From a virus, in the IMG/VR virus record IMGVR_UViG_3300034073_003340, positions 292,634 to 356,633 of that record: DNA of 64,000 nt; one strand, 5' to 3'. A model generated the notes under the pieces. The model had not been told where the DNA came from. It did no database searches and saw only the letters and a program-made list of their open reading frames with translations. Within the stretch, counting starts at the first letter, position 1, and every line of letters starts with the position of its first letter. A program made the position numbers and the translations under genes. Shown here one piece after another: positions 625 through 14,410 of the stretch.

Positions 625-700
625 TGGTGGCCCATATGGGACTCGAACCCACAACCGACAGATTTTAGAGATCCCTGCTCTACCATTGAGCTAAAAGGCC
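625..700 (-). tRNA. Suppressor tRNA, anticodon CTA
   Basis: A full cloverleaf: acceptor GGCCTTT/ATGGGCC (one T.T mismatch), D-arm GCTC/GAGC, T-arm GTGGG/CCCAT with loop TTCGAGT, A73 and encoded CCA. The anticodon loop is CTCTAAA, so positions 34-36 are CTA, which reads the amber codon UAG. The anticodon stem has one G.G and one G.T pair at its outer end. TAG is still used as a stop here, for example at the methyltransferase gene. Confidence 0.8.
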
Positions 701-3571: not shown

Positions 3572-4096
3572 TTAGGAGTGAGTCAACCTGTTTTTCCTGA
3601 TTGTCATCAAAGCCGCCTGATAAATGGTTTGCTTATATACATCAAGGCGATCCTTGATGGCGTCAGGGCTTATGACTACCGGGTTCAGACATTCATCGTT
3701 TTCAACGTATGGCGTACAACGCATTACATCTGCGACATAAAATTGCTGATAGGAAACGGGCCAAGGATATGAATACAGTTCCGGGCGGTTACCTTCACAG
3801 GTTTGTTCCAAGTAACCCACCGCTCTGATATGACTTACCCAGCAGCCAGTTTCTTCAAAGCATTCACGATGCGCTGCGGCACATGACGTCTCCCCTAGAT
3901 TGATATGACCACCAGGAAACTCCAGTCCGCGCCGACGATTGTTGGCCATTACCAAGCTGCCATCGGCCAACAAAGGAACCATAAAGGCAGTGCTAGTTGA
4001 CTCCGCCGGAGATAGATCATCGTCTAGATAAAATATTACCTTGTTGGGCTTTGACAAGTAACTGATGTCGTCAATCTGATAGGTCTTTTGCTTCAT
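3572..4096 (-). CDS. Nudix hydrolase
   Basis: 174 aa with a full Nudix box: GGHINLGETS, then AAHRECFEETG (pattern GX5EX7REUXEEXGU), at about residues 61-83. Nudix proteins hydrolyse nucleoside diphosphates linked to another group. Phage members act on dNTPs, ADP-ribose, NAD or capped RNA; the substrate here cannot be read from sequence. A second, unrelated Nudix gene is at 61838-62410. Confidence 0.88.
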   Translation of the reverse strand: MKQKTYQIDDISYLSKPNKVIFYLDDDLSPAESTSTAFMVPLLADGSLVMANNRRRGLEFPGGHINLGETSCAAAHRECFEETGCWVSHIRAVGYLEQTCEGNRPELYSYPWPVSYQQFYVADVMRCTPYVENDECLNPVVISPDAIKDRLDVYKQTIYQAALMTIRKNRLTHS

Positions 4097-4106
4097 ACCA
4101 GATAGC

Positions 4107-4460
4107 TTACACGTTTTTGGTGTATCCGTCTAGTTCATACTCAATCGCGGTTAGTTTTTCGTTTACGCGGCGTTGTAGATCCAGAAGGTCACGCTGGGTG
4201 GTGCGGATCTCTCGGAGCATCTGGTGTAGCTCAGTAGTATCACGATTTTGGGTATTTTGTAGGAGGAAAACCATCAGAAAGGTGGCAATGGTGGTGCCTG
4301 TATTGACAATAAGCTGCCATGTTTGACTGAAGCCAGCGAATGGGCCCCAGATGGCCCATACTAGAATAGCAGAGAAAGCCAGAGTGAATGCTATTGGTTT
4401 GCCTAAACTATCTGCAATCCATTCGGAAACGTGATCAAATTTCTTGCTTAGATAGGCCAT
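4107..4460 (-). CDS. Low-affinity iron permease family membrane protein
   Basis: 117 aa resembling the Iron_permease family: PIAFTLAFSAILVWAIWGP as TM1, WQLIVNTGTTIATFLMVFL as TM2, then QNTQNRDTTELHQMLREI, characteristic of the family, and a C-terminal coiled coil. Bacterial members of similar size are mostly uncharacterised. A CTAAATA box about 80 bases upstream may be a late promoter. Unusual cargo for a phage; membrane location is confident, iron transport is not. Confidence 0.75.
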   Translation of the reverse strand: MAYLSKKFDHVSEWIADSLGKPIAFTLAFSAILVWAIWGPFAGFSQTWQLIVNTGTTIATFLMVFLLQNTQNRDTTELHQMLREIRTTQRDLLDLQRRVNEKLTAIEYELDGYTKNV

Positions 4461-4562
4461 GTTGTCACTCCCGCGACTATTCTGGTGTCATAGGACTCCT
4501 GATGGTTGATGAAAAAACTAAGGGAAACCCTCGGATTATTTAGTGAAACTACTTGAATTCGT

Positions 4563-6027: not shown

Positions 6028-6200
6028 GTTGTCGATCTCCTTTGTGTTGCCTATGCTCTCTTTCTATACAAAATAGGTGAGCAGTCAACCAGAAATTTGA
6101 AAAATTTGAATCAGTGGTTGCGACAAAGTATCACATCATCAAGATGGCGTGTCAACCATTCATGGCGGGACCCCGGCCACAAGAGACCAGGGTCCAAAAA

Positions 6201-6920
6201 TTACTTGGTTACGATGAAATCGAAAACGTGATCTTCACCGGCAAAATTAACAGTGACCGAGATATTCTCAGGATACTTGGTCTTTTTGATCTTGTTGAGA
6301 ACCACCCGACCGCCGTAGGTTCCATCCGGATCCACGGTGGTGGTTTGGAGGATCTCATCATTGAGATTGTCGAGTGTTTGCTGGAGCCGATACTGACTCA
6401 GAGCAATACCACCAGCCCCGGCTGCGATAGCTGCTACCTGTCCGCCACTGAGACCGGGATTCTGAATCCGTGTGGTATAAATGCCACCGCGAGGGGTTTG
6501 AGTAGTGATGATAGTGTTGTTGTTCTGTGCTGCTGCCGCAACCCCTGCCAGCATCGCTATGCCGATCTGTGACCACATCGCTCGGTTTTTGGCTTTGCTT
6601 TCCAGTTCATCCTTGGTAAAGCAAGCGATCCGTTCTGCACCGCGAGTCATGAAAACATTCTCGACGCCGAAGTTGGTGGACTCAGTTCCTTTGTTGAATG
6701 CGACCACCATGAACTGGAGACTGCCATGATCCAGAGAAGGAATGGGCATAATGCGAACAGCGCCGTTGGTCATGTCATCCTCGATAGTCGGATCGCCCTT
6801 CTCATACCGAACGGTCTGTCCTTCACGTGGAACAGGTTTGATGCTGATTGGCTTTGCCAAGGCCGGCACTGAAATACACATGGCAGCAGCTAGTGCCACG
6901 CTGATAAAGCTCTTGAACAT
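6201..6920 (-). CDS. Exported envelope protein, 239 aa
   Basis: Signal peptide MFKSFISVALAAAMCISVPA, with likely cleavage after ALA at residue 22. The mature protein has a beta-rich N-terminal part, a hydrophobic Ala-rich stretch (MLAGVAAAA), a Gly/Ala stretch (AAIAAGAGGIALSQ) and a C-terminal beta domain. It resembles small periplasmic or outer-membrane-associated proteins; no named family. Confidence 0.75.
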   Translation of the reverse strand: MFKSFISVALAAAMCISVPALAKPISIKPVPREGQTVRYEKGDPTIEDDMTNGAVRIMPIPSLDHGSLQFMVVAFNKGTESTNFGVENVFMTRGAERIACFTKDELESKAKNRAMWSQIGIAMLAGVAAAAQNNNTIITTQTPRGGIYTTRIQNPGLSGGQVAAIAAGAGGIALSQYRLQQTLDNLNDEILQTTTVDPDGTYGGRVVLNKIKKTKYPENISVTVNFAGEDHVFDFIVTK

Positions 6921-6986
6921 TTCGATCTCCTTTTTAAGATAATCAAACGTAACAAAGGCTTAGAGGATGTCAAGTTCAGATGTGGA

Positions 6987-7016
6987 GAACCCCCAGCCGT
7001 TTCCGACCGGGGGTTC
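6987..7016 (-). terminator. Terminator hairpin of the large ncRNA unit
   Basis: Stem GAACCCCC/GGGGGTTC around GGTCGGAAACGGCT. It ends the ~0.9 kb gene-free stretch above. The U-tract is weak. Confidence 0.65.
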
Positions 7017-7872
7017 ATGAAAGGTTGAGAATACACCTTTTACAAAACGTCTTCGAGCATTATCCCTGGCTTCTGACCAGTTTTCTCTCGATTTCCACTA
7101 AGCGTAGCCGAAGCAGTCACTTAGTAACGTTCCAAAGCCGCCAACTTATAGACCGCTGGCATTAGCGGTGTCCTTACGGGCCTTTCGGTAGTGTCTAGTT
7201 ACGCCTGGAATCGCTTCCAGTTAAGCGGCCGCTAAGCCACAACATACCCTCTTCTACCAACACTAGTAGACGTTTGCCCCTACCAGTGTCCCTGTTAGCT
7301 TGCGCCCAGGGAATTAGGCTTTTTCAGCCTCGTAAGCGAGTCAGGCTTTCATTTTTTGACAGCTATGTCTAAAACAGCTATGTTTAACCCATTGCGATGT
7401 GCTGACTCAGTAGCTTCAAAGGCTTTTGACCTCCAAAATACTACACACCACGTATCTTTCGCCTTGCGGGGCTACTTGATCAGTTTTCAAGAACTGTAAC
7501 ACACGGCTGAACCCGTATATTCCAATCCTATCAACTTGCCACTTGCCCTTGGCGCGACCCTCGGACTGTAGTGACTATCTCTTCCCACTTGGTACTGACC
7601 ATATTTCGCTGGCGACGTTGGGGTGCGAAACCCATTATCGAGCCATCCGTTGGACCACTCGACGTATACCGCTTTCGCGGAACAGTCATCCTATGGCGTC
7701 CTACCTATCTCCGCAACCCGTAAAGGCCCGAAGAGCTATCTTTTGGATAGCAGGGTGAGACTTGCTTGTTATTGACCTATATTGCTATAGGCGAGACCTA
7801 TTGGGTTTCAGCCCCTTTCCCTAAGTTGCCCCAGGTTATCTGCTACAAGCAGCAATCTCTAATCTCTTGAGC
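6987..7872 (-). ncRNA. Large structured RNA, GOLLD/ROOL-type candidate
   Basis: About 890 bases without a credible gene, bounded by sigma70-type promoters at the upstream end and a terminator at the other. On the minus strand it is full of hairpins: CCTATA-GCAA-TATAGG with a GNRA loop, CACTGGTAG.../CTACTAGTG, ACTAAG...CTTAGT, and repeats of AGCTGT. Very large ornate RNAs (GOLLD, ROOL) are known from phages next to tRNA genes; membership here is inference from size, context and structure. Only a covariance-model search could confirm it. Confidence 0.6.
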
Positions 7873-7876
7873 CTCT

Positions 7877-7905
7877 AAAGTAACACCAAAGCATCACCTT
7901 GTCAA
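7877..7905 (-). promoter_or_regulatory. sigma70-type promoter of the large ncRNA
   Basis: TTGACA, 17 bases, TACTTT on the minus strand, placing a start near 7870 at the head of the structured stretch. Confidence 0.55.
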
Positions 7906-7969
7906 CAAAAAAGATTCGATCGTTACCAACATTTTGCTTTGCGTAGCTCTGCGCCGTGTTGGTCTCACT

Positions 7970-7998
7970 CTTATATGTAGATTCAACAAAGGCGTCAA
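7970..7998 (-). promoter_or_regulatory. Second sigma70-type promoter upstream of the ncRNA
   Basis: TTGACG, 17 bases, TATAAG on the minus strand, between the GIY-YIG gene and the ncRNA. Either this or the nearer promoter could drive the RNA. Confidence 0.5.
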
Positions 7999-8026: not shown

Positions 8027-9157
8027 TTACGCGGCTATTCTTTCTTCAATTCTTTCAGAGAGTTCCAGAATGGCAGAACGCGCTTCCTCAACTGACATCT
8101 GAAACCATTCACCGTTTGGTCCACGCTTTTTAGCAAAAAACTTATGGATCACCTTTTCTGCAAGAGCTCGATCTAGAAAACCATGATAGAACGCGAATGA
8201 GAAGTCACTGTGAGGATTGTGGGTATTGAAAGCCACCAACCGTTGCTGCAGATCCATGGTCTGTCCGATCTTCACCCATCCAGGAAACGTAGGTGACGTC
8301 ACTACATATACAAAGCCACGCTTGTCACTGGATCTACTCTGCACCGTTCGCAGTTTGGGTTGAGCATTGCGAAGAGCCTGTTGGAAGGCTTCCTGCTCGG
8401 CGACACGCACAGATTCCACTTGTTCTGTATTAGCGTCTTCGTGGGCTAATGAAGCTTTAAGGAAGGGCCCTACTTTATCCAACAGCGCGGCGCGTATATC
8501 AGCATCTGACGTTTTACCACTCTGATATAGTTTGACTATAAATTCTCGTCTGGCTTGGTTGCCTCCTAACGCTGAATTCAGTCGCTGTATGCTTCTACGA
8601 CGACGCAGGTTATGTTCTATAACAAGGTTTCGCCAAGTTGCTTGAAAACGCCTCTGGAAACGTATGTAGGAAACATCCTCTATCTTTTCTTCTTTGTATT
8701 CTTGAGAACGAGCTTGGATTACCTTTTCAATCCATTCGGGAACTGACCTCCCGTAAGAAGCAAATAGATCTCGAAACCGTTGCTGGCGATTGATCGCCCG
8801 TTCGTCGCGCACCTCTCTAGATAGGGGAACAATAGCAGTAGGACGTGATGCTAGAATCTGTCCTACTTCTAATATGAATTCTTTTCGAACGGCATCCAAC
8901 ACCGTCGGCGCTAGTAATTCACGCTCCCATAATAGAGGTTCACCTAGAAAACCATGATCAACGATCTTTGAGAACTGATACTTAGTTCCATAGTACATAA
9001 GGATATGATCATCAGCATCAGCTCGAGAAATTGTGCCCAGACCAAGATTCTTTCTGATACTGTTGTAAGTGTTGAAGCAAGAACGAAACTGTTTTTCACA
9101 TATTGTCCAGCCACCGAATGGCACTACGGCTAACTCAGACTTGTTCTTTTTGCCCAC
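8027..9157 (-). CDS. T5orf172 / GIY-YIG domain protein
   Basis: 376 aa. The C-terminal ~95 residues (GFVYVVTSPTFPGWVKIGQT, then RLVAFNTHNP, LAEKVIHKFF) match the T5orf172/MUG113 branch of GIY-YIG nucleases: YV, VKIG, an Arg and a late Glu. The N-terminal 270 residues are charged and helical with a possible DNA-binding role. Its position beside a large ncRNA and tRNAs fits a homing or nuclease role. Nuclease class is confident, target is not. Confidence 0.75.
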   Translation of the reverse strand: MGKKNKSELAVVPFGGWTICEKQFRSCFNTYNSIRKNLGLGTISRADADDHILMYYGTKYQFSKIVDHGFLGEPLLWERELLAPTVLDAVRKEFILEVGQILASRPTAIVPLSREVRDERAINRQQRFRDLFASYGRSVPEWIEKVIQARSQEYKEEKIEDVSYIRFQRRFQATWRNLVIEHNLRRRRSIQRLNSALGGNQARREFIVKLYQSGKTSDADIRAALLDKVGPFLKASLAHEDANTEQVESVRVAEQEAFQQALRNAQPKLRTVQSRSSDKRGFVYVVTSPTFPGWVKIGQTMDLQQRLVAFNTHNPHSDFSFAFYHGFLDRALAEKVIHKFFAKKRGPNGEWFQMSVEEARSAILELSERIEERIAA

Positions 9158-12463: not shown

Positions 12464-13153
12464 TTAGTCGTCCGACTTGATTCCCACAAAACGTAGGATA
12501 AAGAGGAACATATTCAGGAAGTCGAGGTAGAGGTTCAAGGCCCCCATGACCACGATGCGACCCTGTGTGTCACCGCTCATGCTGGGATCGTAGGCGTCCT
12601 TGAGACTCTGCGTATCCCAGGCAGTCAGACCAGCGAAGATCAAAATACCCGCAATACCAATGAACAGATTCAAGCCGCTGCTGGGAATGAAAATATTCAA
12701 GATCATGAGAGCAATCAGACCAAACAAAGCAAATACCAGAAATGCTCCAATTGGTCCTAGATCACGCTTGGTGGTGTAGCCGTAGAGGCTACACCCTGCA
12801 AAGCCAACCGCACTAGCAAGAAAAGCCATGAGGATAGATCCTCCTGTGTATCGGCTCAAAATCACCGAAAGTCCCAACCCTTCGAGGACCACAAAGGTCC
12901 AATACAAAGTGTGGAGAGTTGTCAGCTTCATGCGCTCAACACCCAGACTCATCGCCAGCACAAGACCCAACGGGGACAATGCCACCAGCCAGAACAGGAG
13001 ACCACCCTGCTTTAAAATCTCCAACATGCCACTCGCAGTAGCAAACCATGCTGCGCCTGCGCTGACCAAGAGACCCATAAGCATCATGTTATAGATGCCC
13101 GTCATATAGTTGCGAAGTCCCTGGTCATAGGACACGCTTCGTGAAATTTCCAT
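12464..13153 (-). CDS. Bax inhibitor-1 / YccA family membrane protein
   Basis: About 229 aa with seven hydrophobic segments from residue ~25 to the C-terminus, and the family hallmarks of a compact seven-helix protein with short loops and a C-terminal DTQ-type stretch (LTAWDTQSLKDAYD). E. coli relatives YccA and YbhL modulate FtsH; YccA is an FtsH substrate and inhibitor. The phage copy might protect membrane proteins from FtsH; that is inference. The start at MEIS is set by the GGGAG ribosome site; a sigma70-like promoter (TTGACC, 17, TATACT) lies upstream. Confidence 0.88.
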   Translation of the reverse strand: MEISRSVSYDQGLRNYMTGIYNMMLMGLLVSAGAAWFATASGMLEILKQGGLLFWLVALSPLGLVLAMSLGVERMKLTTLHTLYWTFVVLEGLGLSVILSRYTGGSILMAFLASAVGFAGCSLYGYTTKRDLGPIGAFLVFALFGLIALMILNIFIPSSGLNLFIGIAGILIFAGLTAWDTQSLKDAYDPSMSGDTQGRIVVMGALNLYLDFLNMFLFILRFVGIKSDD

Positions 13154-13213
13154 GTGATCATTCTCCCTAGGGTTCACAGATCCAGTATAATGGAGGAATA
13201 CCCAAAGGTCAAC

Positions 13214-14410
13214 TTACTTGATGAGACTCTGAATCTCCATGAGCAGGAGAGCTGGCGTAATCTCTTCAGCATGTTGTTTTCCTAGGCGTCGTAATGAAAC
13301 CACGCCTTTTTCAACATCACGTTGACCAATCACTACGATCCAGTTGCGCTTCATCTCACTATGTTCTTTTATCTTTTGTTTTAGATTCTCATCTCGGTCG
13401 TCGTAAATCACGCGAGCACCTTGGACCTGTGCCAAATCTCTAAAGGCCTCTGATGCTTTTTCTCCGCCTGGTAACGGTATCACCACTACATTCTCAGGTG
13501 AAAGCCAGAACGGCAGATTGCCTTCATAGTTTTCAAGCAATATACCAATAAAGCGTTCAAAAGAGCCGAGAATAGCGCGATGTAACATAACAGGTCGCTG
13601 ACGACTACCATCTGCGGCCACATATTCAGCCTCTAGGCGTTCTGGTAATACCATATCCAATTGGATCGTGCCGCATTGCCATTGACGTCCTTTGAGATCC
13701 TTGAGAGCAAATTCTAGTTTGGGACCGTAGAATGCCCCTTCGCCTTTCTGAATGACAAAGTCCAGGCCAGCAGCTTTGACAGCTTCTGAAAGATCGTGCT
13801 CTGCTTTGTTCCAGTCTTCTTCGGAACCAGCTCGCACCGCTGGGCGGGTCGATAGGCCGACCACAACATCAGAGAACCCAAAGTCATTATACACCTCCTT
13901 TAGCAAGAGGATGAAAGACTTTACCTCATCAACTACCTGCTCAGGCGCGCAAAATATATGCGCATCGTCTTGCGTAAACTGTCGAACTCTCATGATTCCA
14001 TGTAGAGCGCCACTTGGTTCACTGCGATGACAACAGCCAAACTCTGCCAAGCGAATTGGAAGTTGTCTATATGAAACTACACCACTGTTGAATATCTGGA
14101 CATGACCAGGACAGTTCATTGGCTTAATCGCAAACTGCCTTTGGTCATCATCTAGAACATACATATGATCTTGGAACTTCTCCCAATGACCAGACTTCTC
14201 CCATAGGGATTTATCAACCAGCTGCGGCGTCTTGACCTCTTGGTAGCCATCACGTCTGAGTTTTGATCGTATATACTCTTCAATAATCCTGAAGAGTTCA
14301 TAGCCCCGAGGATGCCAAAATACTGACCCCGCGGCATCATCCTGGAGATGAAAAAGTTTGAGGTCACGACCAAGACGACGATGGTCGGAATTAGAAAGTT
14401 GAATATCCAT
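13214..14410 (-). CDS. thrS: Threonyl-tRNA synthetase, lacking TGS and editing domains
   Basis: 398 aa against ~640 for bacterial ThrRS. It begins directly at the catalytic core (NSDHRRLGRDLKLFHLQDD). Class II motifs are present: motif 2 region (CCHRSEPSG...MRVRQFTQDDAHIF) and motif 3 (MLHRAILGSFERF). The zinc ligands are Cys of NCPGH, His of DAHIF and His of LHRA. The C-terminal anticodon-binding domain is complete (VVVIPLP to the end). The N-terminal TGS and N2 editing domains are absent, so serine mischarging would not be corrected in cis. Three tRNA-Thr genes are in the window. Confidence 0.93.
   Translation of the reverse strand: MDIQLSNSDHRRLGRDLKLFHLQDDAAGSVFWHPRGYELFRIIEEYIRSKLRRDGYQEVKTPQLVDKSLWEKSGHWEKFQDHMYVLDDDQRQFAIKPMNCPGHVQIFNSGVVSYRQLPIRLAEFGCCHRSEPSGALHGIMRVRQFTQDDAHIFCAPEQVVDEVKSFILLLKEVYNDFGFSDVVVGLSTRPAVRAGSEEDWNKAEHDLSEAVKAAGLDFVIQKGEGAFYGPKLEFALKDLKGRQWQCGTIQLDMVLPERLEAEYVAADGSRQRPVMLHRAILGSFERFIGILLENYEGNLPFWLSPENVVVIPLPGGEKASEAFRDLAQVQGARVIYDDRDENLKQKIKEHSEMKRNWIVVIGQRDVEKGVVSLRRLGKQHAEEITPALLLMEIQSLIK

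What the first reader, a model, noticed from the sequence alone, without database searches (positions are those of the whole stretch)
6987..7998. Stand-alone ~0.9 kb structured RNA with promoters and terminator
Two TTGACR-17-N6 promoters and a terminator bracket a gene-free, hairpin-rich stretch next to a GIY-YIG gene. Giant phage RNAs such as GOLLD and ROOL have this size and context.
Basis: partly seen in the sequence, partly recalled or inferred. Interest (0 to 1): 0.7.

Follow-up and report, generated by a model that had tools for sequence, protein, structure and literature searches.

The report
GOLLD cage-forming RNA of giant phage
The gene-free stretch encodes a GOLLD RNA, a known kind of giant phage RNA that in one solved example assembles by itself into a hollow 14-part cage; this copy lies in a 436-kb virus genome with 57 tRNA genes and belongs to a divergent set of GOLLDs in which the loop that would face the cage interior often carries a tRNA.

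Summary
The minus strand of 7451-7022 matches the Rfam GOLLD model end to end (164.1 bits, cut-off 150, E = 3e-44); no other large-RNA family matches. That model covers only the conserved 3' half. The whole RNA runs from about 7870 down to about 6985. Seven aligned full-length relatives (the window included) support one structure over 5' and 3' domains: 191 pairs, 91% of cells paired, 121 pairs with compensatory changes, none of 500 shuffles as good. No reading frame is conserved. The GIY-YIG neighbour is not a constant partner.

Sampled GOLLDs fall into two score sets: 27 at 281-332 bits and 18 at 145-207 bits. The low set includes this one, Sinorhizobium phage Phosso and the Caulobacter phiCbK group; half of it carries a tRNA in the linker, which this phage does not. 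It is a new member of a known RNA class. Transcription and cage formation are inferred from homology, not shown.

The parts
6985..7870 (-). GOLLD RNA gene, about 885 nt; both ends inferred (start just after the promoter, end at the hairpin)
   Evidence: Full-length alignment with six relatives and covariation; ends from conserved promoter and hairpin
7022..7451 (-). Conserved 3' domain of GOLLD (the part covered by the Rfam model)
   Evidence: RF02032, 164.1 bits, E = 3.2e-44, model positions 1-416 of 416
7452..7870 (-). 5' domain, outside the Rfam model
   Evidence: Helices 1-18; alignable in six relatives; two models from it find further members in place
7762..7855 (-). First 5' element: hairpin whose loop GCUUGU pairs with ACAAGC about 100 nt downstream (pseudoknot) around three further hairpins
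   Evidence: Helices 1 and 2: 96.7% and 100% of cells paired, 3 pairs each with double changes
7669..7680 (-). CCGC-GAAA-GCGG hairpin; possibly the counterpart of loop L11a (GAAA) of GOLLD env-38, not proven
   Evidence: Read in the sequence and alignment; L11a described in PMC12286853
7340..7388 (-). Variable linker of the 3' domain (approximate ends), no tRNA in it; in env-38 the linker lies inside the cage
   Evidence: Alignment; no tRNA by ARAGORN or Rfam; cage position from PMC12286853
7225..7240 (-). Hairpin GUGGC-UUAGCG-GCCGC at the place of P21a, whose loop pairs with itself between half-shells in env-38
   Evidence: GC dinucleotide in the loop in six of seven sequences; assignment to P21a inferred from env-38 numbering
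7877..7905 (-). Promoter TTGACA-17-TACTTT
   Evidence: Kept with the same spacing in L181, L120, L156
7970..7998 (-). Second promoter-like site TTGACG-17-TATAAG, conserved only in the nearest relative
6988..7015 (-). End hairpin AACCCCCGGUCG-GAAA-CGGCUGGGGGUU, probable terminator without U-run
   Evidence: Hairpin kept with changed bases in L120 and L156; Phosso has GCCCCGCAAGGGGCUUUUU at this place
8027..9157 (-). Upstream neighbour gene, GIY-YIG (T5orf172) protein; not part of the RNA unit
   Evidence: Pfam; beside GOLLD only in L181 among seven related records
6201..6920 (-). Downstream neighbour gene, 239 aa, no Pfam or PHROG match, own TTGACA-type site at 6973
   Evidence: kept beside GOLLD in L181 and L156

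Best explanation
This is a GOLLD RNA gene on the minus strand, about 885 nt from about 7870 to about 6985, in a 436-kb virus genome. It is most likely transcribed from its own promoter and ended by its own hairpin. The RNA folds into a 5' domain and a conserved 3' domain with a short variable linker in the latter. By homology with GOLLD env-38, copies most likely assemble through kissing loops and A-minor contacts into a closed RNA cage with the linkers pointing inside, during lytic growth. Shown here: family membership, full-length covarying structure, absence of coding, conserved promoter and end hairpin, tRNA-rich context. Inferred: transcription, cage assembly, timing, and any role in holding tRNAs or other cargo.
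For: Rfam GOLLD match over the cut-off, full model; full-length relatives in 350-470-kb virus genomes; 191-pair structure with 121 compensated pairs, 0 of 500 shuffles as good, in both domains; z = -6.8; no conserved ORF; conserved promoter and end hairpin; tRNAs on both sides and 53-59 tRNAs in related genomes of 350-470 kb. Cage: PMC12286853.
Against: The Rfam score is near the cut-off (164 against 150), far below the 281-332 bits of the main set. The 5' domain, which forms the cap of the cage in env-38, could not be compared with env-38 here. No expression data. One GOLLD was reported dispensable for phage production (cited in PMC7567579), so the benefit to the phage is unclear.
Confidence: 0.95

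Rival explanations
1. It is a GOLLD by descent, but in this branch the RNA does something else: it is mainly a carrier or processing scaffold for a tRNA in its linker, and this phage's lineage has lost or never had the tRNA. A closed 14-subunit cage need not form.
For: 9 of 18 low-scoring GOLLD records carry a linker tRNA of varied identity (Gly, Arg, Leu, Tyr) at nearly the same place; the 5' domain is not recognisable in 15 high-scoring GOLLDs.
Against: Both domains are conserved at equal rates in relatives without any linker tRNA (70-72% in each domain for L120 and L156), so the RNA is kept for itself. A GC dinucleotide stays in the presumed self-pairing loop P21a.
Confidence: 0.2
2. It is a ROOL RNA, an OLE, HEARO or another large RNA class, or an unknown class.
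For: Size and tRNA-rich phage context also fit ROOL (PMC12286853).
Against: Only GOLLD matches in a scan of all 4227 Rfam families.
Confidence: 0.01
3. It is a degraded or unannotated protein-coding gene, and the hairpins are incidental.
For: Small ORFs of up to 71 aa exist on both strands.
Against: None is kept in all three close relatives; substitutions against L120 fall evenly on the three positions, 89/84/79; strong RNA covariation.
Confidence: 0.01

Closest known systems
GOLLD RNA (Rfam RF02032), solved example env-38 (PMC12286853)
   Same: Full-length match to the conserved 3' model, similar length (about 885 against 833 nt), 5' domain plus conserved 3' domain with a variable linker, phage-encoded near tRNAs
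   Different: Scores 164 bits against 281-332 for the main set sampled; its 5' domain is not recognised in 15 main-set members; identity of the cap contacts untested
GOLLD of Sinorhizobium phage Phosso and of the Caulobacter phiCbK group (unannotated in their records)
   Same: Same low-scoring set; Phosso alignable over the full length (52%), phiCbK found in the 5' domain by models built here
   Different: Both have a tRNA in the linker; the window has none
ROOL RNA
   Same: Works alike as far as known: a phage RNA that forms an RNA-only cage (PMC12286853), often near tRNAs
   Different: Different sequence and fold; no match here

Membership tests
GOLLD (RF02032) | Match to the Rfam covariance model at or above the gathering score | tested here: met
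   164.1 bits against 150, positions 1-416 of 416
[quoted passage not shown]
   About 885 nt inferred; 5' domain conserved in relatives but not recognised in 15 main-set GOLLDs
GOLLD (RF02032) | Structure supported by covariation | tested here: met
   121 of 191 pairs with compensatory change, 0 of 500 shuffles as good
GOLLD (RF02032) | Encoded by phages or prophages, often near tRNAs | tested here: met
   Virus record with 57 tRNA matches, tRNAs on both sides
GOLLD (RF02032) | Self-complementary loop L21a (bridge B8 of the cage) | tested here: inconclusive
   GC dinucleotide in the loop of six of seven sequences; which loop is L21a was inferred, and GC in a 5-6-nt loop is not rare
GOLLD (RF02032) | Assembly into a closed 14-subunit cage | not testable with these tools
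   Needs in vitro transcript and mass photometry or cryo-EM
GOLLD (RF02032) | Expression rises during lytic growth | not testable with these tools
   No transcriptome of this phage
ROOL | Match to its Rfam model | tested here: not met
   No match among all families of Rfam 15; that ROOL is in that library is from memory
HEARO | RNA next to its own nuclease gene (IsrB type) | tested here: not met
   No HEARO match; the neighbour is a GIY-YIG protein and is not kept beside the RNA

The most novel reading that the evidence does not exclude
The RNA belongs to a separate GOLLD branch, seen in phages of Caulobacter, Sinorhizobium and Mesorhizobium and in 350-470-kb virus genomes with 53-59 tRNAs, that has its own 5' cap domain and a linker that repeatedly takes up different tRNAs. 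Its cage may differ in size or symmetry from the solved one and may hold covalently attached tRNAs, with the lineage of this window as a natural cargo-free control.
Probability: 0.35. Interest if true: 0.55.

Novelty: new member of a known kind. Interest (0 to 1): 0.36.

Why it matters
What GOLLD does is unknown. This adds a full-length member with a supported structure for its 5' domain, and shows unannotated GOLLDs in cultured phages (Phosso, phiCbK group, Mesorhizobium phage Cp1R7A-A1, DSS3_MAL1), where it can be deleted and assayed. Relatives with and without a tRNA in the linker give a natural comparison for asking whether tRNAs are the cargo of the cage.

Tried and rejected
Pattern scans of IMG/VR: 15-base patterns mostly hit by chance. 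Of 154 pattern-hit IMG/VR records tested with the GOLLD model, 40 matched at E <= 0.001, one of them only a weak partial match; unconfirmed loci were not used as GOLLDs. A first tRNA tally on all pattern sites was dropped for that reason. GIY-YIG gene as a partner protein: not kept beside the RNA. Plus-strand promoter-like site at 7356: lies in the variable linker, not kept in relatives (sequence comparison). AACGATCGAA as a control site shared by other genes: not enriched in the window. Plasmids: no match. Recoded amber stop, suggested by a CTA-anticodon tRNA: TAG still ends 6 of 54 ORFs of 150 aa or more and the test is not informative. Models R1 and R2 (15 and 17 pairs) are weak and serve only as support.

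Full report
What is there. The window is part of a 435,856-base virus record. On the minus strand, 7451-7022 matches the Rfam model of GOLLD RNA over its full length, 164.1 bits against a cut-off of 150, E = 3.2e-44. It is the only GOLLD in that record; 14 control genomes have none. No other large-RNA family matches.

Extent. The Rfam model covers only the conserved 3' half. Iterated profile searches found relatives alignable from about 7905 to 6984: L181 at 93% identity, L120 at 72% (465-kb contig), L156 at 70% (462-kb contig), Sinorhizobium phage Phosso at 52% (469 kb), and the more distant L193 and L154. TTGACA-17-TACTTT at 7905-7877 is kept in L181, L120 and L156 with the same spacing, and a 12-bp hairpin at 7015-6988 is kept with changed bases; Phosso has a classical terminator at that place. 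I infer a transcript from about 7870 to about 6985. The next gene (6201-6920) has its own TTGACA-type site at 6973, so the RNA looks like a unit of its own.

Structure. On the seven-sequence alignment RNAalifold gives 196 pairs, 122 with double changes. A fixed structure of 191 pairs, with one pseudoknot added by eye, pairs in 91.2% of cells against 71.9% for shuffles and 36-44% when slid; 121 pairs are compensated against 62.7 in shuffles, and no shuffle of 500 reaches any observed value. The structure was derived from this alignment, so part of the excess over slid versions is built in; the number of compensated pairs is the stronger evidence. The pseudoknot (7855-7762) joins the loop of the first hairpin, GCUUGN, to NCAAGC about 100 nt later, and both helices covary. 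The single sequence folds better than its shuffles, z = -6.8.

Not coding. No ORF of 35 aa or more is kept in all three close relatives, and substitutions against L120 spread evenly over three positions. Two of the ORFs, 71 and 61 aa, have no PHROG match.

Context. tRNA genes lie on both sides (54 by ARAGORN in the window; 57 by Rfam in the genome), and related genomes of 350-470 kb have 53-59. The GIY-YIG (T5orf172) neighbour is beside the RNA only in L181; the downstream gene is kept beside it in L181 and L156. Neither is a constant partner.

Two sets of GOLLD. Records confirmed with the Rfam model fall into 27 at 281-332 bits and 18 at 145-207 bits. The low set holds the window, L181, L120, L156, Phosso, phiCbK, BL57, Mesorhizobium phage Cp1R7A-A1, DSS3_MAL1 and nine other contigs. 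Sampling was by short patterns and similarity to this RNA, so the gap may be partly a sampling effect. Two models built from the 5' domain find further low-set members at the expected place, some only weakly, but none of 15 high-scoring ones.

Linker tRNAs. In 9 of 18 low-set records a tRNA lies in the linker: tRNA-Gly in phiCbK and BL57, Arg in DSS3_MAL1 and L121, Leu in Cp1R7A-A1, Tyr in L159 and L216, and matches of unassigned identity in Phosso and L125. In the 24 high-scoring ones that could be oriented none was seen, and several have tRNA-Met just downstream. The window, L181, L120 and L156 have no linker tRNA. The records are related, so these are counts, not independent events. That tRNAs sometimes sit in the linker is already stated in PMC12286853.

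Mechanism. GOLLD env-38 forms a closed 14-subunit cage with the linker inside (PMC12286853). For this member the same is inferred. At the presumed place of loop L21a, which pairs with itself between half-shells in env-38, a GC dinucleotide is kept in six of seven sequences; this is consistent but weak. In one prophage a GOLLD was reported to accumulate during lytic infection and to be dispensable for phage production (cited in PMC7567579).

Verdict. It is a known kind, of moderate interest, mainly because the set includes cultured phages and linkers with and without a tRNA.

Noticed in passing
L003 (phiCbK, JX163858.1) 4028-4514; L004 (BL57) 4028-4514; L002 (Phosso) 6044-6512; L241 (DSS3_MAL1) 2020-2483; L242 (Cp1R7A-A1) 1965-2427: GOLLD RNAs present in these phage records but not annotated there; in the Cp1R7A-A1, DSS3_MAL1 and phiCbK records only the tRNA inside the linker is annotated.
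   Followed up: partly
L003, L004, L241, L125, L221, L228, L231: tmRNA genes, some of the permuted kind, lie within about 1.5 kb of GOLLD in several phages.
   Followed up: no
window 625-700 (-): ARAGORN calls a tRNA with CTA anticodon, an amber-suppressor candidate; TAG is the rarest stop of long ORFs in the window (6 of 54 at 150 aa or more), which does not by itself show recoding.
   Followed up: partly
window 13214-14410 (-): Threonyl-tRNA synthetase-like gene of 398 aa (class II core and anticodon-binding domains), 50% identical to one in Phosso.
   Followed up: partly
window 12464-13177 (-): Bax1-I family membrane protein gene (E = 8e-53), unexpected to me in a phage.
   Followed up: no
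window 7915-7924 (-): AACGATCGAA just upstream of the GOLLD promoter is identical in L181, L120 and L156; possibly a regulator site, not enriched elsewhere in the window.
   Followed up: partly
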